NCBI GenBank assembly: GCA_014534345.1
Contig: JACVRR010000006.1
Coordinates: forward strand, 1-44,848
Source of the DNA: Thermoleophilia bacterium
Lineage (GTDB): Bacteria > Actinomycetota > Thermoleophilia > Gaiellales > Gaiellaceae
Direction of reading: 5' to 3'
DNA length: 44,848 nt
Shown here: positions 31,719 to 44,340 of the stretch, in pieces
Numbering within the stretch: position 1 is the stretch's first letter
Layout of the letters: each line of letters opens with the position of its first letter
Position numbers and translations under genes: made by a program
Notes under the pieces: model-generated
What the model was told of the DNA's origin: nothing
The model's input: only the letters and a program-made list of their open reading frames with translations
The model's database searches: none

Positions 31719-32735
31719 TCAGGCGACGACGCGCGAGAAGCGGGGGATGATGTCCCGCCCGTAGGCCTCGAGCGTCTCTTCCTGGTTCTTCGTCATCAGG
31801 TAGACGTTGAACTGGTCGACGCCGATCGACTCCAGCTCGCGCAGCTTCGCGGTCGCCTGCTCCGGCGTCCCGAGCACGCAGAAGCGGTCGCAGATCTCGT
31901 CGCTCACGAACTCGCCGTGCCGCGCGCCGACGCGGCTGTGCTCGCCGTAGTCGTAGAACTTGCGCGCCTTGACGTAGTCGGTCAGCGCGGTGGGGATCTC
32001 GGACTCCCAGCCGTAGCGCTCGATCAGGTCCATGACGTGGTTGGAGACCATCGCCGGGAACCAGCGCACCTGCTCGCGCGCGTCGGCGAGGTCGTCGGAG
32101 ACGTGGCTCGGCGCCGAGACGATGCACTTCAGCTCGCCCGGGTCGCGGCCCGCCTCCTCGGCGGCGCGCCGGGCGGTGTCCATGATCCAGCGGATGATCT
32201 CAGGGTCGGCGAGCTGGATGATCACCCCGTCGCCGACCCGACCCGCGGCCGCCAGCGCCTTCGGCCCGTACCCGGCCATCCACATCGGGATCTCGCCGAG
32301 GTCGGTGCGCGCCCACTTCAGCTCCAGCTCCTTGCCGTTCCACTCCACCTTCCGCCCGTTCATCAGGTCGCGGATCGTGGCGCAGGCCCGCTCGTACTCG
32401 GCGACCGGGACGGGCTTCAGACCGACCACGCGGCGGGACGAGTCGCCGCGGCCGATGCCCATCACCATCCGCCCGTTCGAGATGTCGTGCATCGTCGCGT
32501 ACGCGCTCGCCGTCACGGTCGGCTCGCGGATCCCCGGATTGGTCACGAAGTGGCCGAGCTTCATCGTCGACGTGCGCTCGGCGGCCATCGTCAGCAGCGG
32601 ATACGAGTCCTGCCAGAGGACGTGCGAGTCGTACGTCCAGCCGTACTCGAACCCGTGTCGCTCGCCGAGCTGGATCAGCTCGAGGAAGCGCTGGTACGGC
32701 GGGTCGGGCAGGACGGTGACGCCGAAGCTGAGCAT
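31719..32735 (-). CDS. LLM-class, probably F420-dependent oxidoreductase
   Basis: The 338-residue (beta/alpha)8 protein matches the luciferase-like F420 family: FGVTVLPDPPYQRFLELIQL start, YGWTYDSHVLWQDSYPLL, LGHFVTNPGIREPTVTAS, NGRMVMGIGRGDSSRRVVGL and PMWMAGYGPKALAAAGRVGDG. Family members reduce or oxidise substrates with cofactor F420, or FMN in some. Similar proteins occur, as I recall, near dihydropyrimidinase genes, and one lies in this window at 42931. AGGAGG site before the ATG. It might perform a ring-redox step of pyrimidine-like compounds, but that is inference. Confidence 0.88.
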   Translation of the reverse strand: MLSFGVTVLPDPPYQRFLELIQLGERHGFEYGWTYDSHVLWQDSYPLLTMAAERTSTMKLGHFVTNPGIREPTVTASAYATMHDISNGRMVMGIGRGDSSRRVVGLKPVPVAEYERACATIRDLMNGRKVEWNGKELELKWARTDLGEIPMWMAGYGPKALAAAGRVGDGVIIQLADPEIIRWIMDTARRAAEEAGRDPGELKCIVSAPSHVSDDLADAREQVRWFPAMVSNHVMDLIERYGWESEIPTALTDYVKARKFYDYGEHSRVGARHGEFVSDEICDRFCVLGTPEQATAKLRELESIGVDQFNVYLMTKNQEETLEAYGRDIIPRFSRVVA

Positions 32736-32919
32736 CTGACCTCCTCGTCGGGCGCTGACCGAGCAGGGAAACGAGCATAACGCCTCGAATTCGCGCCCTC
32801 GATGAGCTCGACCACCGTCGTACTGGCGCTCGCCGCGGTGGCCGGGTCGCCTGCGCAGCTCGGGCTCGGAGGCCCCGTCCTCGCCAGCGCCGCCGGCGTC
32901 GCCCGACACGTCGCCACGG

Positions 32920-33942
32920 CTACCGCGCTGCGAGCGATCGCACGCACGCGTCCTCGGCCTCGTAGTCGAAGCGCAGGTAGCGCGCGCCGACCGGGAACGC
33001 CGCCTGCCACGGCCGGTCGCGCGTCGCCGCGACGAGGTACTCGACCGTTCGTTCGAGCCACTCGTCGTAGCGCGTGACCGGCCGGTAGCCGAGCTCGTGG
33101 TCGGCGGCCGTCATGTCGACGACGAGCGGCGCCGGGGCCGACCACGGCGTCCCGCCCACCTCCTCCCCGCCCGCCAGCAGCACCTCGACCCACTCGTGGT
33201 CGAGGATGCGCGCGACCGAGCGCCCGATCTCGAGCACCGTCGGCGGCTCGGGGTCGCCGCAGTTCACGGCGCGCGTGCCCGGTCGCTCCGCCGCGAGGCG
33301 GACGAGCTCGCCGAGGTTCGCGGACGAGGTGGTGTGGAAGCGGCTTGCGCCGCGGTACGCGAGGACGACGTACGGGCGCCGGTCGAGCGCGCGCTTGACG
33401 AAGAACCACTCGCGCGCCTGCCGGTCGCCGGGGCCGTGGATCGCGCACGGCCGGACGACCGTCGCCGGGAGTGCGTCCTGCTCGAGCAGCAGGCGCTCCA
33501 TCGCGGCCTTCTCGCGCGAGTACGTCGACTCGCCGGGCGGCGCGGTCGGCTGCGACTCCGGGATGGGGACCGGGTAGTCGGGAAAGTCGTCCGGCCCCTG
33601 CATGTCGTCGAGGACCCGGCCGTCCGTCCCCGCGTAGACGGAGGCGGTCGAGATCGCGACCAGCGAGCCGACGCGGCCCGCGAGCCCGAGCAGCTGCTCG
33701 GCGTCTGCGGGACGCATCGCGAGCACGTCGACCAGCACGTCCGCCCCGTCCGCGACCGCACGCTCGAGCGAGCCCGGCTCGCGGCGGTCGACCGGCGCGA
33801 AGCGCGCGCCTTCCAGCCCCGGCGCGTGCTCGCGCTCGCCGCGGCTGCCGAGGGTCACGTCCCAGCCGACGTCGCGCAGCCGCGGGACGACCGCCCTCCC
33901 GATCATCCCGGTGCCGCCGAGCACGAACGCCGTCCGGGCCAC
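32920..33942 (-). CDS. NAD-dependent epimerase/dehydratase (extended SDR)
   Basis: The 340-residue protein has the Rossmann motif FVLGGTGMIGRAVV and catalytic STASVYAG with YSREKAAME (YxxxK). The middle VRPCAIHGPGDRQAREWFFV and late VNCGDPEPPTVLEIG fit extended SDRs that bind nucleotide sugars or reduce such compounds. Substrate not clear; similar proteins are annotated as mRNA-binding/CSP41-like or reductases. GTG start. It is directly followed (9 bp) on its upstream side by the MFS transporter's stop. Confidence 0.85.
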   Translation of the reverse strand: MARTAFVLGGTGMIGRAVVPRLRDVGWDVTLGSRGEREHAPGLEGARFAPVDRREPGSLERAVADGADVLVDVLAMRPADAEQLLGLAGRVGSLVAISTASVYAGTDGRVLDDMQGPDDFPDYPVPIPESQPTAPPGESTYSREKAAMERLLLEQDALPATVVRPCAIHGPGDRQAREWFFVKRALDRRPYVVLAYRGASRFHTTSSANLGELVRLAAERPGTRAVNCGDPEPPTVLEIGRSVARILDHEWVEVLLAGGEEVGGTPWSAPAPLVVDMTAADHELGYRPVTRYDEWLERTVEYLVAATRDRPWQAAFPVGARYLRFDYEAEDACVRSLAAR

Positions 33943-33951
33943 GGCGGCACG

Positions 33952-35067
33952 CTAGCCGGCGAGCTGCGCCCGCCGCGGCAGCGCGAGCAGCGACGCCGCC
34001 CACAGGACGGCGACCGCCGCGAACCCGAGACGCCCGTCGCCGGGCAGGCCGAACGTCAGCCCGACGAGCGGCGTGCCGACCACGATCGCCAGCGCCGCCC
34101 AGACGTTGACGAGCCCGATCGCGGCGCCCGGCGCGTCCGGCCGCGCCCGCTGCGCGCCGGCGAACGCCGGGGCGAAGGCGAATCCGGCCGCCAGCCCGAG
34201 GATCGCGCAGGCGAGCGCCAGCACCGGCAGCGGGGCCGGCAGGGCGAGCACCGCGGTGGCGCCCGCGCCGGCCGCGAGGCTCCAGCCGACAATCGCCCGC
34301 GCGTGCCGCGCGTGGCGGCGCACGAGCCAGCCGCCGAGCGGCCGGGTGACGAGGCCGGCCGCGAGCGTGAAGGCACCCAGGGCGCCGGCGGTCTCGCTCG
34401 CCGCGCCGGCCCGCTCGAGCAGCGTTACGACCCAGTTCGCGACCACCGTGCTCAACCCGAAGGACGCCGTGTGAATAGCGGCGAAGCGGTAGAGGACGCG
34501 GTCGCCGAGGACCGACCGTAGCGAGGCGCGCGCGCGGGCGACCCGCCCGGTCGCGGGCGCGAGGAGGAGCGCGACCAGCATCGCGAGCGCGAGCGCGGCT
34601 GCGCTGAGGAAGGGCGCGCGCCAGCCGGCGACGTTCTCGAGCAGCGGGACGATCGCGAGCGCGAACCCGCCGCCGCCCACGCCCGCGCCGCCGTACAGCC
34701 CCTGCGCGGTCGCCGTGCCGCCCGCCGCCCGCACGTAGTCGGAGCCGGCGACGAACCCGAGCCCCGTCCCGACGCCCGCCAGCGCGCGCGCGACCAGCCC
34801 GAGCGCTAGCTCGGGTGCGAGAGCAGCGAGGCCGTTGGCGACCGCGAGGACCGCCACCGCCAGGATCCCGGTCTCGCGCGGCCCGAAGCGGTCGACGGCC
34901 ATCCCCGCCGGCACCTGCATCGCCATGTGGACGACGAACAGCGCGGTGGTCAGCAGCCCGACCGCGGCCAGCCCGACCGCGTAGGCGTGCGCCAGCGGCT
35001 CAGCGATCGCGCCGACGTTCGCGATGTTCCAGCCGACAGCGAGGCCCAGCCCGACGCCGACGGCCAC
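33952..35067 (-). CDS. MFS transporter
   Basis: The 371-residue protein has about twelve hydrophobic helices and a MFS loop signature between helices 2 and 3, MAVDRFGPRETGILAVAV. The second loop repeat is RPLGGWLVRRHARHARAIV. It probably exports or takes up a small solute; substrate unknown. The GTG with GGGAGGG close upstream marks the start: the frame runs further to 36078 but there overlaps the regulator gene. It lies 29 bp after the BTAD regulator and probably shares its transcript, as does the epimerase. Confidence 0.88.
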   Translation of the reverse strand: MAVGVGLGLAVGWNIANVGAIAEPLAHAYAVGLAAVGLLTTALFVVHMAMQVPAGMAVDRFGPRETGILAVAVLAVANGLAALAPELALGLVARALAGVGTGLGFVAGSDYVRAAGGTATAQGLYGGAGVGGGGFALAIVPLLENVAGWRAPFLSAAALALAMLVALLLAPATGRVARARASLRSVLGDRVLYRFAAIHTASFGLSTVVANWVVTLLERAGAASETAGALGAFTLAAGLVTRPLGGWLVRRHARHARAIVGWSLAAGAGATAVLALPAPLPVLALACAILGLAAGFAFAPAFAGAQRARPDAPGAAIGLVNVWAALAIVVGTPLVGLTFGLPGDGRLGFAAVAVLWAASLLALPRRAQLAG

Positions 35068-35096
35068 GGCCCTCCCGGCGGCGCCGCGACGCGAGG

Positions 35097-36881
35097 CTAC
35101 GGGACCGCCACCCAGACGGCGCCGTGCCCGGCCGCGAGCGCGATCGCCGCCCGGCCGAGCTCCGCGCGCGCGACGACGACGTTCCGGACGGGGTCGATCC
35201 GACTGACAGCTCCCTCGCGCCCGAGCGCCCACACGGCTCGACGGTCGACCGCGACGTCGATCACGCCACCCGGCACGCGGACGGCAGCCGAGGCGACCTC
35301 GTCGGTGGGGTCGATCCGCCACAGCTGCTCGCCGCGCTCCAGCGCGACCCAGACCGCGCGCGCATCGGCCGCGATCGCGAGCGGGGGAGCCGGCACCGGG
35401 ATCCGGGCGAGAACCTCCCCGGTGGCGGCGTCGAGCCGAGCGACGCGGCCGAGGCGCTCGTGCTGGGGATAGCGCGTCACCGGGTTCGTCACCCATACCG
35501 ACCCGCCGGCGACGGCGACGCTCCGCTCGGCGTCGCCCTCGAGGAACGAGCCGCGTCCCGGGATGCCGATCGGGCGCAGCTCCCCGGTCGCCACGTCGAA
35601 GCGCGTGATGCCGGAGAGCGCGCGCTCCGCGAGCCAGACCGAGTCGTCGTCGGCGGCGACGGCGTCGACGCGGGGCTCGCCCGGCTCGAGCGCGTAGACG
35701 CGATCGGTCCGCAACCGCGCGAACTTCCGCCCGACGCCGTCCACGGCCCAGATCGCCTCCCCGCTCGCGGCGAGCCGCGTCGCACTGACGGCGCTGCCCA
35801 CGGCCGCCGGCTCGCGAGCCGCGGGCCGCACGACGACGAGCGTCCTCCGCCGCGGGATCGCCACGTACACGGCGCGGCGTGCCGCCACGACGTCCGTCGG
35901 GACCGCGTCCAGCGCGATCGCTTCGGTGAGCCGAACGCTGTCGGCGTCGACGACCGCGAGCGACCGGGCCGGAACGCCCGCGACGCCGCGCGGCCGGAGC
36001 GCGAGGGCGCCCACCGCGAGCGCGAGAGCCGCCACGAGCGCCGCGGCGGGAAGCGCCGCCCGGCGCCGCGACGACCACGGGCGCTCGGGCACGGGGCGCG
36101 TCGTCGCCGCCGCGCGAGGCGGCGCGCTCGGCGCGAGCCCGGGATCGTGCTCGAGGATCGCCCGCTCGAGGCGGCGGAGCTCCGGCCCGGGCTCGAGCCC
36201 GAGCTCGTCTCCGAGCCGCCGGCGGTACTCCTGGTACACCGCAAGGGCGTCGGCGTGCCGCCCGGCGCGGTAGAGCGCGCGCATCAGCAGCGCGCGCGGG
36301 CCCTCGCGGTGGGGGTGCTCGGCGACCAGCCGGTCGAGGTCGGCCAGCACGTCCGCGTGCCGCCCCTCCTCCAGGTCCGCCTCGATGCGCGCCTCGAGCA
36401 GCTGCGTGCGGAGCTCCACGAGCCGGGCGATCTCCGCCTGCGCGAAGTCCTCGTACGCGAGGTCAGCGAGGGGCGCGCCGCGGAACAGCGAGAGCGCCTC
36501 GCGGAACGTGTGCCCCGCCGTGCCGGGCTTGCCGGACGCGAGCTCCTCGCGCCCGCGCTCGAGCAGCGCGGCGGCGCGGTCGCGGTCGAGCTCGCCGTCC
36601 CCCACGCGCAGCACGTAGCCGGCGGGGACGGTCTCGAGGCGTCCGCCGGCGCCGTCGGCGGAGAGGCTCTTCCGCAGGCGCGATATGTGGATCTGCAGCG
36701 TCTTCGCCGCGTTCGCGGGCGGCTCGTCGCTCCACAGCTCGTCGATCAACCGGTCGGGGGAGACCGGCTCGTTCGCGTGGAGCAGCAGGAGCGCGAGGAG
36801 CGCCCGCGGCTTGCGGCCGCTCGGGGCCAGCGAGCGCCCGCCGTTCTCGACCTCCAGTGGTCCCAGGATGCGGAAGTGCAC
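35097..36881 (-). CDS. SARP/BTAD regulator with membrane anchor and propeller
   Basis: The 594-residue protein begins with an OmpR-type winged helix (FRILGPLEVENGGRSLAP, KPRALLALLLLHANEPVSPD, TLQIHISRLRKSL), then a BTAD helical repeat domain (~95-245: ALLMRALYRAGRHADALAVY, LGLEPGPELRRLERAIL). After a Pro-rich linker one transmembrane helix follows (~276-296). The last ~300 residues contain repeated short blocks such as VWLAE, VWVTNP, VWVALERGEQLWRIDP and VWALGR, a beta-propeller. The propeller should lie outside, so it may sense a signal and control DNA directly. GTG start; TAGCGT at 36895-36900 could be its -10. First of three minus-strand genes. Confidence 0.87.
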   Translation of the reverse strand: MHFRILGPLEVENGGRSLAPSGRKPRALLALLLLHANEPVSPDRLIDELWSDEPPANAAKTLQIHISRLRKSLSADGAGGRLETVPAGYVLRVGDGELDRDRAAALLERGREELASGKPGTAGHTFREALSLFRGAPLADLAYEDFAQAEIARLVELRTQLLEARIEADLEEGRHADVLADLDRLVAEHPHREGPRALLMRALYRAGRHADALAVYQEYRRRLGDELGLEPGPELRRLERAILEHDPGLAPSAPPRAAATTRPVPERPWSSRRRAALPAAALVAALALAVGALALRPRGVAGVPARSLAVVDADSVRLTEAIALDAVPTDVVAARRAVYVAIPRRRTLVVVRPAAREPAAVGSAVSATRLAASGEAIWAVDGVGRKFARLRTDRVYALEPGEPRVDAVAADDDSVWLAERALSGITRFDVATGELRPIGIPGRGSFLEGDAERSVAVAGGSVWVTNPVTRYPQHERLGRVARLDAATGEVLARIPVPAPPLAIAADARAVWVALERGEQLWRIDPTDEVASAAVRVPGGVIDVAVDRRAVWALGREGAVSRIDPVRNVVVARAELGRAAIALAAGHGAVWVAVP

Positions 36882-36919
36882 GCGCTCCCGCCCGACGCTA
36901 CCACGGTCCGCGGCGGCCG

Positions 36920-36969
36920 GAAACCGGGGTGAAACCGCGGGGACGCCGCCCGAAGCCGGCGCGAAAGCG
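36920..36969. promoter_or_regulatory. Five heptamer direct repeats, candidate SARP operator
   Basis: GAAACCG occurs exactly at 36920 and 36931, with variants GACGCCG (36942), GAAGCCG (36952) and GAAAGCG (36963). Spacing is 11, 11, 10 and 11 bp, i.e. one helical turn, the known pattern of SARP binding sites. It stands 38 bp upstream of the regulator's start and 62 bp upstream of the divergent small gene, so autoregulation and control of both sides is plausible. Confidence 0.65.
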
Positions 36970-37031
36970 GCGTCTCGCACGCTCCGGGGGATGCGGCCGC
37001 ACCGGGCGGCCGGGACAGGAGGGAGACGGAG

Positions 37032-37325
37032 ATGTGTGTGAGGTACACCACGATCACGGCGGCACTCGCGGCGGCGCTCCTCGCGCCGGCGGCGCAGGCG
37101 AACCACCAGTTCGGCGACGCACTGCTCGACGCCGACGGAGCCCGCGCCGGCGCGGTGCCGACCACGGTCCCGACGGAGCCGGTCGCGCGCGTCGAGCCGA
37201 CCGGGTTCGACTGGGGAGACGCGGCGGTCGGGGCGGCCCTCGCGGCGACGCTCGCCCTGCTGCTGCTCGCGCTCGCGGTCCGCGTCCGCAGGTCGGGCGC
37301 GACGGTCCCGCGGGCCGCGGCGTAG
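37032..37325 (+). CDS. Small exported membrane protein
   Basis: The 97-residue protein has a signal peptide (TITAALAAALLAPAAQA, cleavage near residue 23), a short exported segment with ANHQFGDALLDADG, and a C-terminal membrane helix (AVGAALAATLALLLLALAV) followed by RVRRSG, so the tail lies inside. A GFDWGDAAVGA segment precedes the helix. GGAGGGAGACGGAG gives a strong ribosome site. It is divergent from the BTAD regulator and shares the heptamer-containing intergenic region; it may be a target of it. Family not recognised. Confidence 0.72.
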   Translation: MCVRYTTITAALAAALLAPAAQANHQFGDALLDADGARAGAVPTTVPTEPVARVEPTGFDWGDAAVGAALAATLALLLLALAVRVRRSGATVPRAAA

Positions 37326-37381
37326 GACGTGCCGGCCGGAGGGGCGGCGTGCACCGCCGCCCCCCCGGCGATCGCTGCCGG

Positions 37382-38626
37382 TCAGGCGCGCGCTGCGACC
37401 CAGTCCAGCGCCTTGGACGCCAACCGGTCGAGCGCGCGCACCGACAGCTCGATGTGCTCGGGCTTCGTGTCCTCGAGCTTCGTGTGCGAGAGGCCGCGCA
37501 GGCTCTGGACGAACAGCATCACCGTCGGGACGCCGGCGCGGGCGACCTCGGCCGCGTCGTGCAAGGGGCCGCTCGGCAGGCGGTGCGACTCCCCGGCGAC
37601 CTCGCGGACCGACTCGTCCGCCAGCTCCACCAGCTCTTCCTCGAACAGGATGGGGCCGATGTGCCAGATGCGATCCCAGGACACGTCGATCCGCTCCTCC
37701 TCGGCGAAGCGCGCGGCCGCGTCCCTGGCCTCCTCGAGCATCCGCGCGAGCGTGGCGGCCTCCATGTGCCGCTGATCGAGGAGCTGCTCGGCGGTCTCGA
37801 CCACGGAAGTCATGATCCCCGGCCGGGTGACGATCCCGCCCGAGGTACAGACGGCGCCGCCACCCGCGCGGCGCGCGATCTCGCGGATCTCGAGCGCCAG
37901 CTTCGCTGCGCCGGCGAGCGCATCGCGCCGCTCCCCCATGGGGGTCGAGCCCGCGTGGGCCGCCTGCCCCTTCCAGGTGATCAGATGCCGCTCGACCCCG
38001 AACGTCCCGATCACCGCGCCGAGCGGGAGGCCGAGCGACTCGAGCACGGGCCCCTGCTCGATGTGCAGCTCCAGGTAGGCGGCGGCGCTCTCGAGCTGGC
38101 GGCCGGACTCCGTCGCCCGGTCGAGGTCGACGCCGTGCTCGCGCAGCGCGTCAGGGAGGGCGACGCCGTCGCCGTCGACGCGCCGCCGGAGGTCGTCCTG
38201 GTCGGCCATCGTCCGGGAGCACGCGCTGGAGCCGAACAGGCTGCGCCCGAAGCGCGCTCCCTCCTCGTCGGCCCAGTCGACCAGCCGGACGGTGACGGGC
38301 GGCTCGCCCTCCTCGGCGATCCGGCGCAGCACCTCGGCCGCCGCGAGCAGGTTCAGGCAGCCGTCCAGCCAGCCGCCGTTCGGGACGGAGTCGACGTGCC
38401 CGCCGAGCAGCAGCGCGCGCTCGGAGCGACCGCGCAGCGTCCACCACTGGTTCCCCGCCTCGTCGACCTCGTGCTCGACGGGCAGCTCGGCCACCTTGCC
38501 GCGCAGCCACTCGCGCGCCCGCGCCCACGTCTCCGTCCAGGCGACCCGCTGCGCGCCGTGCTCGTCACCCGTCAGCTCCTGCAGCTCGCGTAGCTCCGAC
38601 ACGGTGCGCGGCGGCTGCAGCGGCAT
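37382..38626 (-). CDS. M20 family N-carbamoyl-amino-acid / ureidopropionate / allantoate amidohydrolase
   Basis: The 414-residue protein matches the HyuC/AllC group: LLLGGHVDSVPNGGWLDG with ligands H77, D79 and D88, WADEEGARFGRSLFGS (Glu pair), LELHIEQGPVLES, the lid WKGQAAHAGSTPMGERRDAL and the last His in SLRGLSHTKLEDT. These two-metal enzymes release ammonia and CO2 from N-carbamoyl compounds. With the dihydropyrimidinase at 42931 it would complete ring breakdown to a beta-amino acid, though allantoate remains possible. The start ATG has TAGGGT seven bases upstream. Confidence 0.9.
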   Translation of the reverse strand: MPLQPPRTVSELRELQELTGDEHGAQRVAWTETWARAREWLRGKVAELPVEHEVDEAGNQWWTLRGRSERALLLGGHVDSVPNGGWLDGCLNLLAAAEVLRRIAEEGEPPVTVRLVDWADEEGARFGRSLFGSSACSRTMADQDDLRRRVDGDGVALPDALREHGVDLDRATESGRQLESAAAYLELHIEQGPVLESLGLPLGAVIGTFGVERHLITWKGQAAHAGSTPMGERRDALAGAAKLALEIREIARRAGGGAVCTSGGIVTRPGIMTSVVETAEQLLDQRHMEAATLARMLEEARDAAARFAEEERIDVSWDRIWHIGPILFEEELVELADESVREVAGESHRLPSGPLHDAAEVARAGVPTVMLFVQSLRGLSHTKLEDTKPEHIELSVRALDRLASKALDWVAARA

Positions 38627-38639
38627 CGCGCGGACCCTA
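38627..38639 (-). promoter_or_regulatory. Leaderless start motif TAGGGTCCGCGCG
   Basis: On the minus strand TAGGGT and seven further bases precede the ATG at 38626. It differs from the 10176 motif only in the last base before the start codon. Confidence 0.6.
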
Positions 38640-38664
38640 ACCGGGCCGCGCCCGCGGCCGGGCG

Positions 38665-39021
38665 TCAGCGGCGCTCGACGCGCTCGCAGTCGACGCCGAC
38701 GAAGTCGTCCGCGTCCGCGAGCACCGCGTCGCGACCGGGACCGCAGCCGACCACGTCCGAGCCGCCCCCGCGGGCGTCGACCCGGTCGTCCCCCGGACCT
38801 GCGAGCAGGCGGTCGGCGCCCGGCCCGCCGTGGAGGACGTCCGCTCCCGCACCGCCGCAGACGAGGTCGCGGCCGCTCCCCGCGCGCAGGCGGTCGCCGC
38901 GAGCGGTCCCTGGCCGGGTGCACACGGGCTGCCAGTCGGGCGCCGCGCCGCGCCGCGTCAAGCGCCGGCTCGACGATCCGTCGGCGGCGTAGCGGCGCGC
39001 TCGCCGCGTCTCGCCGGTCAC
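38665..39021 (-). CDS. Ca-binding-repeat (RTX-like) protein, likely 5'-truncated remnant
   Basis: The 118-residue protein has GxGxD-type repeats (GSGRDLVCGGAGADVLHGG, PGDDRVDARGGGSD) and Cys pairs, ending with VGVDCERVERR. Its first ~35 residues, RRYAADGSSSRRLTRRGAAPDWQP, look like the last blade of a TolB/PD40 propeller (DG..RRLTR....PDWQP). There is no signal peptide. It is therefore probably the tail of a larger secreted protein whose 5' part has been lost. However, a GTG with TACGCT six bases upstream could still drive it. Confidence 0.6.
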   Translation of the reverse strand: MTGETRRARRYAADGSSSRRLTRRGAAPDWQPVCTRPGTARGDRLRAGSGRDLVCGGAGADVLHGGPGADRLLAGPGDDRVDARGGGSDVVGCGPGRDAVLADADDFVGVDCERVERR

Positions 39022-39114
39022 GAATCAAGCGTACGGCGACGCTGTTAGGGAAGCGTGAGCCGGCCGGGTCGCACGGCGGACGGACGCAGCGTGCAGTGTG
39101 GTAAGAGGTACGCG

Positions 39115-40002
39115 ATGGCGACCGCGGCCGCCGCCGACCAGCGACGCGCCCCGTTCGCGGCAGGCGTCACCAGGGCGACGAGCGTGGTCGCGACGTTCCT
39201 GGGAGTCCTCGCGGGTCTCTGGGCGCTCTGGGAGGCGTTCAAGTGGGTCGGCGAGGCGACCGGCTTCCGCCTCGGCCGGTTCGCGGTGAACGACCGCACG
39301 TTCCCACACCTGCACGACATCATCGGGGCGCTGTTCGAGCCGTCCCGCCGGAACGGTCCGCTCCTGCTCGAGGTCCTCGTCGACGCCGCGCTCTACACCG
39401 CGCGGGAAGCGGTCGTCGGCTTCGCGATGGGCGCCGTGGTCGGCTTCGCGATCGGCGTGGTGCTGTCGCACTCGGCGCTCCTGCAGCGCGGCTTCCTCCC
39501 GTACATCGTCGCCTCGCAGACGATCCCGATCCTCGCGATCGCCCCGATGGTCGTCGTCTGGCTCGGCTCGCGCGGCATCGCCGGCTGGATGTCGGTGGCG
39601 GTCATCGCCGCCTACCTGACGTTCTTCCCGGTCGCGATCAGCACGCTGCGCGGCCTCCAGTCGGCGGACGCGCGAGCCCTCGAGCTGATGGAGTCGTATG
39701 CGGCGGGCCGGTGGGCCGTCCTCTGGAAGGTGCGCGTTCCCGCCTCGCTGCCGTTCCTCTTCGCCGCCTTCAAGATCTCGGCAACCGCGAGCGTCGTCGG
39801 CGCGATCATCGGCGAGCTGCCGGCGGGTGTGCCGGACGGGCTCGGGACGGCGATCCTCAACTTCAACCAGTACTACTCCCTCGCGCCGACCCGCTTGTGG
39901 GCGACGAACGTGATCGCCGCACTCGTCGGCATCGCGTTCTTCCTCGCCGTCGTCGTGGCGGAGCGGCTGGTCGTGCGCCGCGCGCCCGAGCACTACGCAT
40001 GA
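39115..40002 (+). CDS. ABC transporter permease (NMT1/THI5-type importer)
   Basis: The 295-residue protein has six membrane helices and the SsuC/ThiX-type EAA loop ELMESYAAGRWAVLWKVRVPASLPFLF, where the ATPase docks. A long periplasmic loop with LHDIIGALFEPSRRNGP follows helix 1. Start ATG with AAGAGG upstream (an earlier in-frame GTG at 39055 is less likely). It heads a plus-strand unit with the ATPase (ATGA overlap), second permease, binding protein and dihydropyrimidinase. Confidence 0.9.
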   Translation: MATAAAADQRRAPFAAGVTRATSVVATFLGVLAGLWALWEAFKWVGEATGFRLGRFAVNDRTFPHLHDIIGALFEPSRRNGPLLLEVLVDAALYTAREAVVGFAMGAVVGFAIGVVLSHSALLQRGFLPYIVASQTIPILAIAPMVVVWLGSRGIAGWMSVAVIAAYLTFFPVAISTLRGLQSADARALELMESYAAGRWAVLWKVRVPASLPFLFAAFKISATASVVGAIIGELPAGVPDGLGTAILNFNQYYSLAPTRLWATNVIAALVGIAFFLAVVVAERLVVRRAPEHYA

Positions 40003-40820
40003 GCGAGCGCTCGGTCGTCTCCCTGCGCGACGTCACGAAGGTCTTCCCGCGCGGAGAGGTGCGCGCACTGGAGAACATCGACCTCGAGATCCGCCCGGGC
40101 GAGTTCGTCTCGCTGATCGGCCCCTCCGGCTGCGGCAAGTCGACGCTGCTCCGCGTCGTCGGCGACCTCGTCGAGCCGACGGCGGGCGCCGTCGTGGTCA
40201 ACGGCAAGCCGGCCCACCAGGCGCGGCTCGACCGCGATTACGGGATCGTGTTCCAGGACGCCGTCCTGTTCGACTGGCGCACGGTGGCGAGGAACATCGC
40301 GCTGCCCCTGGAGATGCTCGGCTGGAACCGGCACCGCCGCGCCGAGCGGGTTCGCGAGATGCTCGACCTCGTCGAGCTGGACGGGTTCGGCGAGCACCAT
40401 CCGTGGCAGCTCTCCGGCGGGATGCAGCAGCGCGTCTCGATCGCACGCGCACTCGCCTTCGACCCGCCGCTGCTGTTGATGGACGAGCCGTTCGGGGCGC
40501 TGGACGAGATGACCCGCGAGCGGCTCAACCTCGAGCTACTGAGAATCTGGGAGGCGAGCGGCAGCACGGTGATCTTCGTCACCCACTCGATCGCAGAGGC
40601 GGTCTTTCTCTCGACCCGCGTGGTTGTCATGTCGCCGCGGCCCGGGCGGATCGCGGGCATCGTCGAGATCGACCTGCCGTATCCCCGGACCGCCGAGACG
40701 CGGGAGCAGCCGCGGTACTCCGACCACGTCCGCGACGTCCGCAAACTGCTGCGCACGCGAGCCGGCCTCGGCAGCGCCGACGCGGCCGCCGAGCCGGCGC
40801 CGGAGGAGGACGTCTACTGA
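39999..40820 (+). CDS. ABC transporter ATP-binding protein
   Basis: The 273-residue ATPase has Walker A GPSGCGKSTLL, Q-loop IVFQDAVLFDW, signature LSGGMQQRVSIARAL, Walker B LLLMDEPFGALDE and the switch His in IFVTHSIAEAVFLS. It belongs with the nitrate/sulfonate/taurine/pyrimidine importers. It powers the importer formed by the two neighbouring permeases. The start overlaps the permease stop (ATGA). Confidence 0.96.
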   Translation: MSERSVVSLRDVTKVFPRGEVRALENIDLEIRPGEFVSLIGPSGCGKSTLLRVVGDLVEPTAGAVVVNGKPAHQARLDRDYGIVFQDAVLFDWRTVARNIALPLEMLGWNRHRRAERVREMLDLVELDGFGEHHPWQLSGGMQQRVSIARALAFDPPLLLMDEPFGALDEMTRERLNLELLRIWEASGSTVIFVTHSIAEAVFLSTRVVVMSPRPGRIAGIVEIDLPYPRTAETREQPRYSDHVRDVRKLLRTRAGLGSADAAAEPAPEEDVY

Positions 40821-40831
40821 GCACGCGGCCG

Positions 40832-41665
40832 GTGGAGCCTCAGGCGGGCGCGATCCTCGTCGAGCCGCCGGAGCGGACCCTCGGGCGCCGGCTGCGCGGA
40901 CGCGCGGCGGACTGGGGCCCCGCGCTCGGCGTCTTCGTGCTCGGCCTCGCGCTCTGGGAAGGGCTCGTGCAGGGGTTGGACGTCGAGCGCTTCCTCCTGC
41001 CGCCGCCCTCCGAGATCCTCGAGACGCTGCGCGAGAACTGGGGTCCGCTCTCGGGCGCCGCTTGGTTCACGTTCCAGGAGGCGCTCGGTGGATTCGCGAT
41101 CGGCTCGGCCGCGGGCATCGCAGTCGCGCTCGTCCTCGCTCGCTGGCGGCGCGTCGGGCGCGCGATCATGCCCTACGCGATCGCGGCGAACGCCGTCCCG
41201 ATCATCGCGTTCGCACCGATCACGAACAACTGGTTCGGAGTCACGAACAAGTCGTCGAAGATGGCGATCGCGGCCGTGCTGGTCTTCTTCCCGGTGCTGG
41301 TCAACACGCTCCGCGGCCTGACATCCGTGCGGCCTGCTTCGATCGAGCTCATGCGCTCCTACGCGGCCGGCGAGCTCGACGTCTTCCGGCGGGTGCGGAT
41401 CCCGAACGCCCTTCCCTTCGTGTTCACCGGGTTGAAGGTGGCGACCGTACTCGCGATGATCGGCGCCATCGTGGGCGACTACTTCGGAGGCTCGCAGGAC
41501 TCGCTCGGAATCCAGATCCGCCGCTCGGCCGGCATCTTCGCGTTCACGCACGCCTGGGCGGCGATCGTGCTCGCCAGCGCGCTCGGGATCGCGTTCTACG
41601 CCGCGGTCGCGGTCGCCGAGCGGCTGACGATGCGACGGTACCCCTCGGCTCGCAGGGCCGACTAG
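40832..41665 (+). CDS. ABC transporter permease, second subunit
   Basis: The protein (277 residues from this GTG) has six helices and the EAA loop ELMRSYAAGELDVFRRVRIPNALPFVFTGLKVA. It pairs with the first permease in a heterodimer. Start is uncertain: a GGAGGAGG site at 40802-40809 sits eight bases before a CTG (40817) that overlaps the ATPase stop as CTGA, like the ATGA/GTGA junctions elsewhere; the GTG given here has no ribosome site of its own. The true start may therefore be CTG (282 residues). Confidence 0.88.
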   Translation: MEPQAGAILVEPPERTLGRRLRGRAADWGPALGVFVLGLALWEGLVQGLDVERFLLPPPSEILETLRENWGPLSGAAWFTFQEALGGFAIGSAAGIAVALVLARWRRVGRAIMPYAIAANAVPIIAFAPITNNWFGVTNKSSKMAIAAVLVFFPVLVNTLRGLTSVRPASIELMRSYAAGELDVFRRVRIPNALPFVFTGLKVATVLAMIGAIVGDYFGGSQDSLGIQIRRSAGIFAFTHAWAAIVLASALGIAFYAAVAVAERLTMRRYPSARRAD

Positions 41666-41714
41666 GGGCGACAGGGCAAGCGAGCCAGTTCACCGAGAGA
41701 AAGGGGAAGTGCGG

Positions 41715-42851
41715 ATGCAGGGTCGGAGGTCATGGTGGACGACCGCGCTACTGGTCGTCGCAGCGCTCGTCCTCCTCGCCGGCTGCGGGGGGGACGACAA
41801 CGGCGAGGCGGGCGAGGACGGCGACACCGCGCCGCAGCAGCGTGACAGGGTCACGCTCCAGCTCAAGTGGGTCACCCAGGCGCAGTTCGCGGGCTACTAC
41901 GCCGCGGAGGAGCAGGGGTACTACGAAGACGAGGGGCTCGACGTCACGATCCGCCCCGGCGGACCGGACATCGTCCCCGAGCAGGTCGTGCTGGGCGGCC
42001 AAGCGGAGTTCGGCATCAACTGGCTCGACAACACGCTGGCCACCCGCGACGAAGGCGGCCAGATCGTCAACGTCGCGCAGGTCTTCGCGCGCTCCGGCAT
42101 GACGGAGATCGTCTGGGCCGACAGCGACATCCAGGACATCACCGACCTCAGGGGCAAGAAGGTCGGCGTCTGGCTCGGCGGCAACGAGCACAAGCTCTTC
42201 GCCGCGCTGAACAAGAACGGCCTCGACCCGCAGAAGGACGTCGAGATCGTCGCCCAGCCGTTCGACATGAACCTCTTCATCAACCGCGAGATCGACGCCG
42301 CGGCCGCGATGACGTACAACGAGCTCGCGCAGGTGCTCGAGACGAAGAACCCCGAGACGGACGAGCTCTTCCAGCTCGAGGATCTTCGCGTGTTCAAGAT
42401 GTCGGACCTCGGCACCGGGGCCCTCGAGGACGGGATCTTCGTCCGCGAGGATTGGATAGCCGACGAGACCAACCAGGACATCGCCCGGCGGTTCGTGAAG
42501 GCGAGCCTGAAGGGCTGGGTCTACTGCCGCGACAACCCCGACGACTGCGTCGACTACGTCCTCGCCGCGGGGCCGACCCTGGGCGAGGGCCACCAGCGCT
42601 GGATGATGAACGAGATCAACGCGCTCATCTGGCCGAACGAGACGGGCATCGGGATCATGGACGAGGACGACTTCGGCAACACGGCGGAGATCGCCGAGAG
42701 CTACGGCGTGATCAAGAACCCGGCCTCCGACGAGGCGTACCGCACCGACATCGCCGAGGCCGCCGTCGAGGAGCTGCGCGACGAGGACGTCGACGTCAAC
42801 GGCGAGGACTGGGAGAAGCCGGACGTGGAGGTCACCGAGGGCGGCGAGTAG
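41715..42851 (+). CDS. ABC transporter substrate-binding lipoprotein, NMT1/THI5-like
   Basis: The 378-residue lipoprotein has a signal peptide with lipobox LLAGC (Cys at ~24), an acidic linker, and the THI5/NMT1 fold: LKWVTQAQFAGYYAAEEQGYYEDEGL, GGQAEFGINWLDNTLATRD, VGVWLGGNEHKLFAAL and a periplasmic C terminus. Related proteins bind pyrimidine precursors of thiamine (ThiY) or sulfonates. Downstream dihydropyrimidinase points to a pyrimidine- or hydantoin-like ligand. The ATG is chosen for an AAGGGG site eight bases upstream. A hairpin follows the gene. Confidence 0.9.
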   Translation: MQGRRSWWTTALLVVAALVLLAGCGGDDNGEAGEDGDTAPQQRDRVTLQLKWVTQAQFAGYYAAEEQGYYEDEGLDVTIRPGGPDIVPEQVVLGGQAEFGINWLDNTLATRDEGGQIVNVAQVFARSGMTEIVWADSDIQDITDLRGKKVGVWLGGNEHKLFAALNKNGLDPQKDVEIVAQPFDMNLFINREIDAAAAMTYNELAQVLETKNPETDELFQLEDLRVFKMSDLGTGALEDGIFVREDWIADETNQDIARRFVKASLKGWVYCRDNPDDCVDYVLAAGPTLGEGHQRWMMNEINALIWPNETGIGIMDEDDFGNTAEIAESYGVIKNPASDEAYRTDIAEAAVEELRDEDVDVNGEDWEKPDVEVTEGGE

Positions 42852-42870
42852 CACCGCAGAGAAGCTCAAC

Positions 42871-42905
42871 CGTGGCCGCCGGGAGGGATACTCTCGGCGG
42901 CCACG
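42871..42905 (+). terminator. Intercistronic hairpin between binding protein and dihydropyrimidinase
   Basis: CGTGGCCGCCG and CGGCGGCCACG form a perfect 11-bp stem with a 13-base loop, followed by TGTTT. It could stop part of the transcripts or stabilise the binding-protein mRNA while allowing lower expression of the enzyme 26 bp further on. Confidence 0.6.
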
Positions 42906-42930
42906 TGTTTCCCGCGAGGAGGACGGCGCG

Positions 42931-44340
42931 ATGTCGGTACTGATCAAGGGCGGCCGCGTGATCACCGCGGCCGACGACTACGTCGGGGACGTGTTCGTCG
43001 AGGACGAGCGGATCTCCGTGATCGGCGAGTCGCTCGACGTCGGCGCCGACCGGGTGATCGACGCGAGCGGCAAGTACGTGCTGCCGGGGTGCGTCGACCC
43101 GCACACGCACCTCGACATGCCCTTCGGCGGCACGGTCACGATCGACGACGTCGAGTCGGGCCACGTCTCGGCCGCGTTCGGCGGCACGACGTGCCACGTC
43201 GACTTCGTCATCCAGCCGCAGGGGCAGTCGTTCGCGCAGGCGCTCGAGACGTGGCACGCCAAGGCGAACGGCAAGGCGCTGATCGACTACGGCTACCACA
43301 TGGCCGTGACCGACGTGCGCGAGGGCGGCTCGCTGGAGGAGCTCGCGTCGCTGCCCGAGCAGGGCGTGACCTCCTACAAGCTGTTCATGGCCTACAAGGG
43401 CGCGCTCATGGTCGACGACGAGACGCTCTTCCGCACCATGCAGGTGGCGGCGGAGACGGGCGCCCTCGTCATGGTCCACGCGGAGAACGGCGACGCGATC
43501 GCCGTCCTCATCGAGCAGGCGCTGGCCGCCGGCCACAGCGAGCCGCACTGGCACGCGCTGACGCGACCGCCCGAGACCGAGGGAGAGGCGACCAACCGCG
43601 CCATCCAGCTCGCCCGGGTGGCCGGCGCGCCGCTGTACGTCGTCCACGTGTCGTGCAAGGAGGCCGTCGAGCCGATCGCTGCCGCACGCGAGAAGGGCTG
43701 GGACATCTGGGGCGAGACGTGCACGCAGTACTTCTTCGTCGACTACTCGTTCCTCGAGCGGCCTGACTTCGAGGGGGCGAAGTACGTGTACACGCCGCCG
43801 CCGCGCCCGAAGGAGCACCAGGACGTGCTGTGGGCGGCGGTGAAGAACGACGTGCTCTCGGCGATCTCGACCGACCACTGCTCGTTCAGCTGGGACGGGC
43901 AGAAGACGCTCGGCCGGGACGACTTCTCGAAGATCCCGAACGGGGGGCCCGGGCTCGAGAACCGGCTGCACATGATCCACGAGTTCGGCGTGCGCGCCGG
44001 GCGGATCTCGCTCAACCGCATGGTCGAGCTGCTGGCGACCAACCCGGCGAAGCTGTTCGGGCTCTACCCGCGCAAGGGCACGGTCGCAGTCGGGAGCGAC
44101 GCCGACCTGGTCGTCTTCGACCCCGACAAGCGGCTGACCATCTCCGCCTCGACGCACCGCTCCAAGGCCGACTACAACCTGTTCGAGGGGACCGAGGTGA
44201 CCGGCGCGCCCGAGGTCGTCCTGCGTCGCGGCGAGGTCCTGGTCGAGAACGACGAGCTCGTCGGACGGATCGGGTCGGGGCAGTTCGTCCGCCGGGCGCG
44301 GTTCCGCGAGGAGCTGAAGGCACCGACCGCCGTGGCGTAG
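42931..44340 (+). CDS. hydA: Dihydropyrimidinase / hydantoinase
   Basis: The 469-residue amidohydrolase has all metal ligands: DPHTHLDM (H58, H60), the carbamylated lysine K150 in SYKLFMAYKG, HAENGD (H183), VVHVSCKEA (H239) and the catalytic Asp in ISTDHCSFS (D315). The sequence NRLHMIHEFGVRAGR is typical of the dihydropyrimidinase group. It opens dihydrouracil, dihydrothymine or hydantoins to N-carbamoyl amino acids, which the M20 enzyme at 37382 could then hydrolyse. GAGGAGG before the ATG. Confidence 0.94.
   Translation: MSVLIKGGRVITAADDYVGDVFVEDERISVIGESLDVGADRVIDASGKYVLPGCVDPHTHLDMPFGGTVTIDDVESGHVSAAFGGTTCHVDFVIQPQGQSFAQALETWHAKANGKALIDYGYHMAVTDVREGGSLEELASLPEQGVTSYKLFMAYKGALMVDDETLFRTMQVAAETGALVMVHAENGDAIAVLIEQALAAGHSEPHWHALTRPPETEGEATNRAIQLARVAGAPLYVVHVSCKEAVEPIAAAREKGWDIWGETCTQYFFVDYSFLERPDFEGAKYVYTPPPRPKEHQDVLWAAVKNDVLSAISTDHCSFSWDGQKTLGRDDFSKIPNGGPGLENRLHMIHEFGVRAGRISLNRMVELLATNPAKLFGLYPRKGTVAVGSDADLVVFDPDKRLTISASTHRSKADYNLFEGTEVTGAPEVVLRRGEVLVENDELVGRIGSGQFVRRARFREELKAPTAVA

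What the first reader, a model, noticed from the sequence alone, without database searches (positions are those of the whole stretch)
36920..36969. Five heptamers at helical spacing: candidate operator of the adjacent BTAD regulator
GAAACCG twice exactly and three one- or two-base variants lie at 11, 11, 10 and 11 bp steps. SARP proteins are known to bind heptamer direct repeats with 11-bp periodicity. The array is in the divergent promoter region of the very SARP-type gene in this window and of a small exported protein, suggesting self-control and a paired target.
Basis: partly seen in the sequence, partly recalled or inferred. Interest (0 to 1): 0.65.

Follow-up and report, generated by a model that had tools for sequence, protein, structure and literature searches.

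The report
Self-operator of a membrane-anchored SARP regulator
A row of five near-identical 7-letter DNA words, one per helical turn, sits in front of a gene for a membrane-anchored regulator and is very probably the site where that regulator controls its own gene; more than a hundred related regulators carry their own, differently spelled, version of the array, and the spelling follows the amino acids of the regulator's DNA-reading helix.

Summary
The array is real: five heptamers at 36920-36969, steps 11, 11, 10, 11, the best such chain in the 44.8-kb window and matched by 0 of 1000 shuffles of the intergenic region. Read in the sense of the BTAD/SARP-type gene (GTG start 36881, minus strand) it is CGGTTTC repeated, 19 bp (8+11) upstream of an extended -10-like GTGGTAGCGT. 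The only close ortholog (55% identical) carries CGGTTTC-N4-CGGTTTC 8 bp from the same motif; the exact double heptamer occurs once in each of the two genomes. Across 148 related regulator genes the 110 bp upstream show a large 11-bp repeat excess (z=36), absent from control regions. Repeats differ between paralogs, and the eight DNA-binding-domain columns most informative about the repeat letters all lie in the recognition helix or its approach (partial Mantel p=0.0005). So each regulator most likely binds its own promoter. The protein is an unusual SARP: DNA-binding domain, BTAD, one predicted membrane helix, then a YVTN-type beta-propeller. Whether the divergent small exported protein is a co-target is unproven. 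New variant of a known kind; binding and direction of control remain to be tested.

The parts
36920..36969 (-). Array of five heptamers, consensus CGGTTTC in regulator sense (CGCTTTC, CGGCTTC, CGGCGTC, CGGTTTC, CGGTTTC from distal to proximal), steps 11, 10, 11, 11: proposed self-operator
36909..36915 (-). Sixth in-phase slot (CGCCGCG), 8 bp from the -10, degenerate (2/7 matches): the RNA-polymerase-proximal SARP position is vacant here but filled in the ortholog
   Evidence: by inspection
36895..36900 (-). Putative -10 element TAGCGT preceded by GTGG; the same GTGSTANNNTCG motif stands upstream of many relatives
   Evidence: a strict sigma-70 consensus scan finds nothing
35097..36881 (-). Regulator gene (GTG start), 594 aa: Trans_reg_C DNA-binding domain (23-90), BTAD (98-243), predicted membrane helix (about 275-297), YVTN-type beta-propeller (about 303-594)
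36663..36716 (-). Recognition helix and approach, residues 56-73 (ANAAKTLQIHISRLRKSL); R68 aligns with AfsR R92, I64 with AfsR T88
37032..37325 (+). Divergent small exported protein (97 aa): signal-peptide-like start, C-terminal GFDWGDAAVGA motif + transmembrane stretch + Arg
36994..37012 (+). Hairpin/palindrome CGGCCGC-ACCGG-GCGGCCG in the leader of the exported gene, ending 19 nt before its start codon

Best explanation
The array is the operator through which the adjacent SARP-type regulator controls its own promoter. Monomers of the regulator would bind successive heptamers side by side on one face of the DNA, one per helical turn, just upstream of a -10 element (TAGCGT) that has no good -35, and would recruit RNA polymerase as AfsR does: a positive feedback loop. 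The regulator is tethered to the membrane by one helix; its extracytoplasmic beta-propeller would sense an external condition and set whether the cytoplasmic SARP domain can act. The exported protein encoded on the other side of the array is a likely but unproven partner in the loop. Shown by computation: array, conservation, 11-bp periodicity across the family, helix-operator covariation, phase to the -10 motif, domain architecture. Inferred: binding itself, activation rather than repression, signal sensing, control of the exported gene.
For: Array rank 1 in window, 0/1000 shuffles. Closest ortholog L010 has CGGTTTC-AAGA-CGGTTTC-8 bp-TAGCGT; exact doublet occurs once per genome, each time here. 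148 family upstream regions: 381 heptamer pairs at lag 11 against 35.8 expected, z=36; lag 22 z=13; three control regions z -1.1, -2.5, -1.3. 41% of SARP upstreams have 3 or more lag-11 pairs against 3.9% of 110-bp windows in 110 kb of the same genomes. 80% of upstreams have a modelled array above the 95th percentile of control. Distance from last heptamer to TAnnnT is 7-9 modulo 11 in 31 of 46 loci (12.5 expected if uniform), window 19. Columns 60, 65, 64, 57, 63, 68, 61, 67 are the top eight of 94 by mutual information with the repeat letters; partial correlation of operator similarity with recognition-helix similarity 0.35, p=0.0005, with the rest of the domain -0.02. SARP domain matches AfsR (E 1.9e-43; 42% identity in Foldseek). 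SARP operators as 11-bp direct repeats 8 bp from -10: PMC10936776; PimR with three heptamers, 10-bp and 11-bp steps: PMC5930380.
Against: Only one close ortholog is held, from a 69%-complete genome. The family code predicts the CGGT half of the window's heptamer but not its TTC half (own operator ranked 59 of 80). The last heptamer lies 19, not 8, bp from the -10; the proximal slot is degenerate. The -10 is assigned by motif, not by a mapped start site, and a strict sigma-70 scan finds no promoter. Loci are not phylogenetically independent. About 20% of relatives have no clear array.
Confidence: 0.85

Rival explanations
1. The array is bound by the regulator but serves mainly the divergent exported-protein gene; it represses or does not affect the regulator's own gene.
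For: The array lies between the two genes; exported genes stand divergently at 54 of 149 loci under strict criteria.
Against: Repeats are direct and point to the regulator's -10; their phase to TAnnnT on that side clusters at 8+11n. No TAnnnT is seen on the exported side in the window (by inspection). Arrays also occur at loci where no divergent exported gene passed the criteria.
Confidence: 0.08
2. The array is the target of another SARP paralog of the same genome, not of the adjacent regulator.
For: Nine BTAD matches in the genome; SARP cascades are known in Streptomyces (PMC10972967).
Against: Paralogs in this genome have different repeats in front of their own genes (L004 CGCTTAC, L008 TGGAGCG, L002 CGGTTGG); the letters follow the adjacent gene's recognition helix across the family; the ortholog retains the same heptamer.
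Confidence: 0.05
3. The periodicity is a by-product of GC-rich sequence, hairpins or overlapping coding constraint.
For: 79% GC; p = 0.04 only for the best pair alone.
Against: Shuffles, neighbouring control regions and genome background all lack the signal; coding sequence gives lags such as 3, 9, 12, 27 and 33, not 11.
Confidence: 0.02

Closest known systems
AfsR and the afs box of afsS (Streptomyces coelicolor)
   Same: OmpR-type DNA-binding domain + BTAD; 11-bp direct repeats upstream of a weak promoter; 3' repeat 8 bp from -10 (PMC10936776); R92 equivalent (R68) kept
   Different: AfsR carries NOD and TPR domains and acts on another gene (afsS); here a membrane helix and beta-propeller follow, the operator is in the regulator's own promoter and has five units; base-contacting T88 is I64
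PimR operator of pimM (Streptomyces natalensis)
   Same: Three heptamers CGGCAAG with 4-bp spacers plus a doublet with a 10-bp step; main operator does not overlap -35 (PMC5930380): the best match in layout, including the 10-bp step
   Different: PimR is a SARP-LAL, acts on pimM, other heptamer
ToxR/CadC-type one-component membrane regulators
   Same: OmpR-type DNA-binding domain, one membrane helix, sensor outside (established knowledge; likeness of layout only)
   Different: No BTAD and no SARP heptamer arrays; sensor fold different
EmbR (Mycobacterium tuberculosis)
   Same: DNA-binding domain + BTAD fold (PDB 2fez)
   Different: Ends in an FHA domain; no membrane helix or propeller (established knowledge)

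Membership tests
SARP family | N-terminal OmpR-type winged-helix domain | tested here: met
   Pfam Trans_reg_C 47.2 bits over cut-off 26.2; AfsR alignment
SARP family | Bacterial transcriptional activator domain directly after it | tested here: met
   Pfam BTAD E 1e-42, 146.4 bits; Foldseek to AfsR TMt 0.87-0.89
SARP family | Operator of heptamer direct repeats at 11-bp steps | tested here: met
SARP family | 3' repeat 8 bp from the -10 element | tested here: inconclusive
   19 bp (8+11) in the window, 8 bp in the ortholog; family phase 7-9 mod 11 in 31/46; -10 not mapped
SARP family | Binds the repeats and activates transcription | not testable with these tools
   needs gel shift and reporter
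Known SARP size classes (small, medium, large, SARP-LAL) | SARP domain alone, or followed by NB-ARC, TPR or LAL-type C-terminal domains | tested here: not met
   Followed by a predicted membrane helix and beta-propeller; the 2024 review PMC10972967 does not mention membrane SARPs (0 hits for 'membrane')
Antibiotic cluster regulator | Sits in or controls a secondary-metabolite cluster | tested here: not met
   Neighbours examined are epimerase, MFS, M20 hydrolase, NMT1-type ABC transporter, amidohydrolase and luciferase-like monooxygenase; no dedicated cluster search was run

The most novel reading that the evidence does not exclude
A large family of membrane-tethered SARP sensors in Gaiellaceae-like actinobacteria in which each paralog has a private, co-evolved operator confined to its own promoter, forming many insulated self-switches, often paired with a small exported protein that carries a shared leader hairpin and an undescribed C-terminal anchor; the natural set of more than 100 regulator-operator pairs amounts to a readable SARP recognition code.
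Probability: 0.4. Interest if true: 0.75.

Novelty: new variant of a known kind. Interest (0 to 1): 0.62.

Why it matters
How SARPs choose their sites is poorly understood because few regulator-operator pairs are known. Here most regulator genes carry their own presumed operator next door, so over 100 pairs come for free, and simple rules already show (residue K60 with CGG; N60 with CGCTGA or CGCTTA; H60 with CTCAA; Y65 with A, and N64 or A/R65 with C, at the seventh letter). It also extends SARPs from antibiotic-cluster activators to membrane-anchored sensors in a largely uncultured soil lineage.

Tried and rejected
Other targets in the genome: exact or one-mismatch doublets occur only at this array and at one site inside a coding region; two-mismatch sites are mostly coding, so no regulon was found (genome 69% complete). 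No second copy stands before the catabolic genes of the window, so control of the hydantoin/pyrimidine-like cluster is not supported. A consensus sigma-70 scan found nothing. The idea that GFDWxDAGIGA-tailed proteins occur only beside SARP genes failed: about 12 of 15 fetched loci not used as seeds have no SARP gene within 1.5 kb. Rfam has no match to the leader hairpin. Predicting the window's full heptamer from the family code worked only for its CGGT half.

Full report
OBSERVATION. The five heptamers are exactly where stated. Allowing any five-unit chain with 10-12 bp steps, the site is the best in the 44,848-bp window, and none of 1000 dinucleotide shuffles of the 150-bp intergenic region equals it. 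In regulator sense the units are CGCTTTC, CGGCTTC, CGGCGTC, CGGTTTC, CGGTTTC.

THE GENE. The minus-strand gene begins at GTG 36881 and encodes 594 aa: Trans_reg_C and BTAD, then a low-confidence linker with a predicted helix (280-293) inside a hydrophobic stretch preceded by Arg-rich sequence, then about 28 strands forming a beta-propeller (AlphaFold on 13 aligned relatives, mean pLDDT 86.5). Foldseek matches the first part to AfsR and EmbR and the second to YVTN/WD-type propellers; the sequence search gives AfsR at 1.9e-43 and an archaeal surface-layer YVTN protein at 1.2e-5. The membrane helix and its topology (propeller outside) are inferred from the sequence and the positive-inside rule; no dedicated predictor was run.

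ORTHOLOG. In 103 genomes of the same family only one close ortholog exists (55% identity). Its promoter reads CGGTTTC-AAGA-CGGTTTC-GCAGGTGC-TAGCGT, that is the same heptamer, the 11-bp step, and 8 bp to the same -10 motif. The exact doublet occurs once in each genome, at this place only.

FAMILY. Genomes of the family hold up to a dozen SARP-type genes. I fetched 168 upstream regions, 149 after removing redundancy and distant taxa. Heptamer pairs matching at 6 or more of 7 peak sharply at lag 11 (381 against 35.8; z=36) and 22 (z=13) in the last 110 bp; regions further upstream or in the gene show no lag-11 excess. Against sliding windows over 110 kb of these genomes the enrichment is ten-fold. 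A simple array model finds arrays in 119 of 149 upstreams, with consensus near CGGTAAAG/CGCTTAAG and many local spellings, several with a single 10-bp step as in the window. Paralogs in the window's own genome have different spellings. A small set of twelve SARP genes from other actinobacteria also shows lag-11 excess (z=7.3), though lag 16 is as high there.

CODE. With arrays chosen without use of the proteins, residue columns of the DNA-binding domain were ranked by mutual information with the repeat letters: the top eight of 94 are all in residues 57-68. Residue 60 dominates (K with G at letter 3; N, T, H, Q mostly with C); residues 64/65 go with letter 7. In a partial Mantel test operator similarity follows recognition-helix similarity (0.35, p=0.0005) and not the rest of the domain (-0.02); the helix columns were the ones picked on nearly the same loci, so this second test is confirmatory of the ranking, not independent of it. 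AfsR contacts specific bases through R92 and T88 of this helix (PMC10936776), which align with R68 and I64. For the window the code gives CGGT correctly but not TTC; its TTTC spelling is shared with L010 and partly with L024.

GEOMETRY. The distance from the last heptamer to the TAnnnT element is 7-9 modulo 11 bp in 31 of 46 loci, the SARP 8-bp rule plus whole turns; the window has 19. This favours activation from one face of the helix, but -10 elements are assigned by motif.

EXPORTED NEIGHBOUR. The + strand gene at 37032 encodes a 97-aa protein with signal-peptide-like start and a GFDWGDAAVGA-transmembrane-Arg tail. Divergent exported genes stand at 54 of 149 loci under strict criteria. The tail is a recurrent motif without a Pfam or above-threshold NCBIfam match, often beside SARP genes but not confined to them. 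The leader carries a hairpin or palindrome; 11 of 54 such leaders have one with 6 or more pairs, all ending 17-21 nt before the start codon, 0.55 expected. A covariance model finds two further strong cases, both beside SARP genes. The stems were chosen for perfect pairing, so covariation does not separate an RNA hairpin from a DNA palindrome.

VERDICT. Self-operator: very likely. Positive feedback: probable, inferred. Paired control of the exported gene: open. As a SARP it meets the domain and operator criteria but fits none of the size classes described in PMC10972967.

Noticed in passing
window 36994-37012; also L016, L036, L073, L102, L105, L123, L140, L157, G000:C91:4963-5005: Leader hairpin/palindrome NNNCGC-A...G-GCGNNN ending 17-21 nt before the start codon of the exported gene next to SARP regulators; no Rfam match. 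Could be an RNA element or a protein-binding palindrome.
   Followed up: partly
window 37185-37307 and about 55 places in related genomes: C-terminal motif GFDWxDAGIGA + transmembrane stretch + Arg in small exported, often internally repetitive proteins: looks like an undescribed surface-anchoring or sorting signal; only a sub-threshold NCBIfam hit (GVDTG_CTERM, E 0.05).
   Followed up: partly
L072, L100, L131, L144, L037 (upstream of MDYRILGPLEAL-type regulators): Arrays with two interleaved spellings: outer CGGTAACG units flank inner CCCACG-like units with a fixed 11, 11, 10, 11 layout, as if two protomer types or a degenerate centre were involved.
   Followed up: no
window 31722-44340: The regulator lies among genes for a luciferase-like monooxygenase, M20 hydrolase, NMT1-type ABC transporter and hydantoinase-like amidohydrolase; a gene that reads like a luciferase-like monooxygenase is also near the ortholog in G046:C339. 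No array stands before these genes.
   Followed up: partly
L045, L048 (Nonomuraea), upstream of SARP genes: Repeats with a lag-16 excess as well as lag 11 in the distant-taxon set, a possible different operator layout.
   Followed up: no
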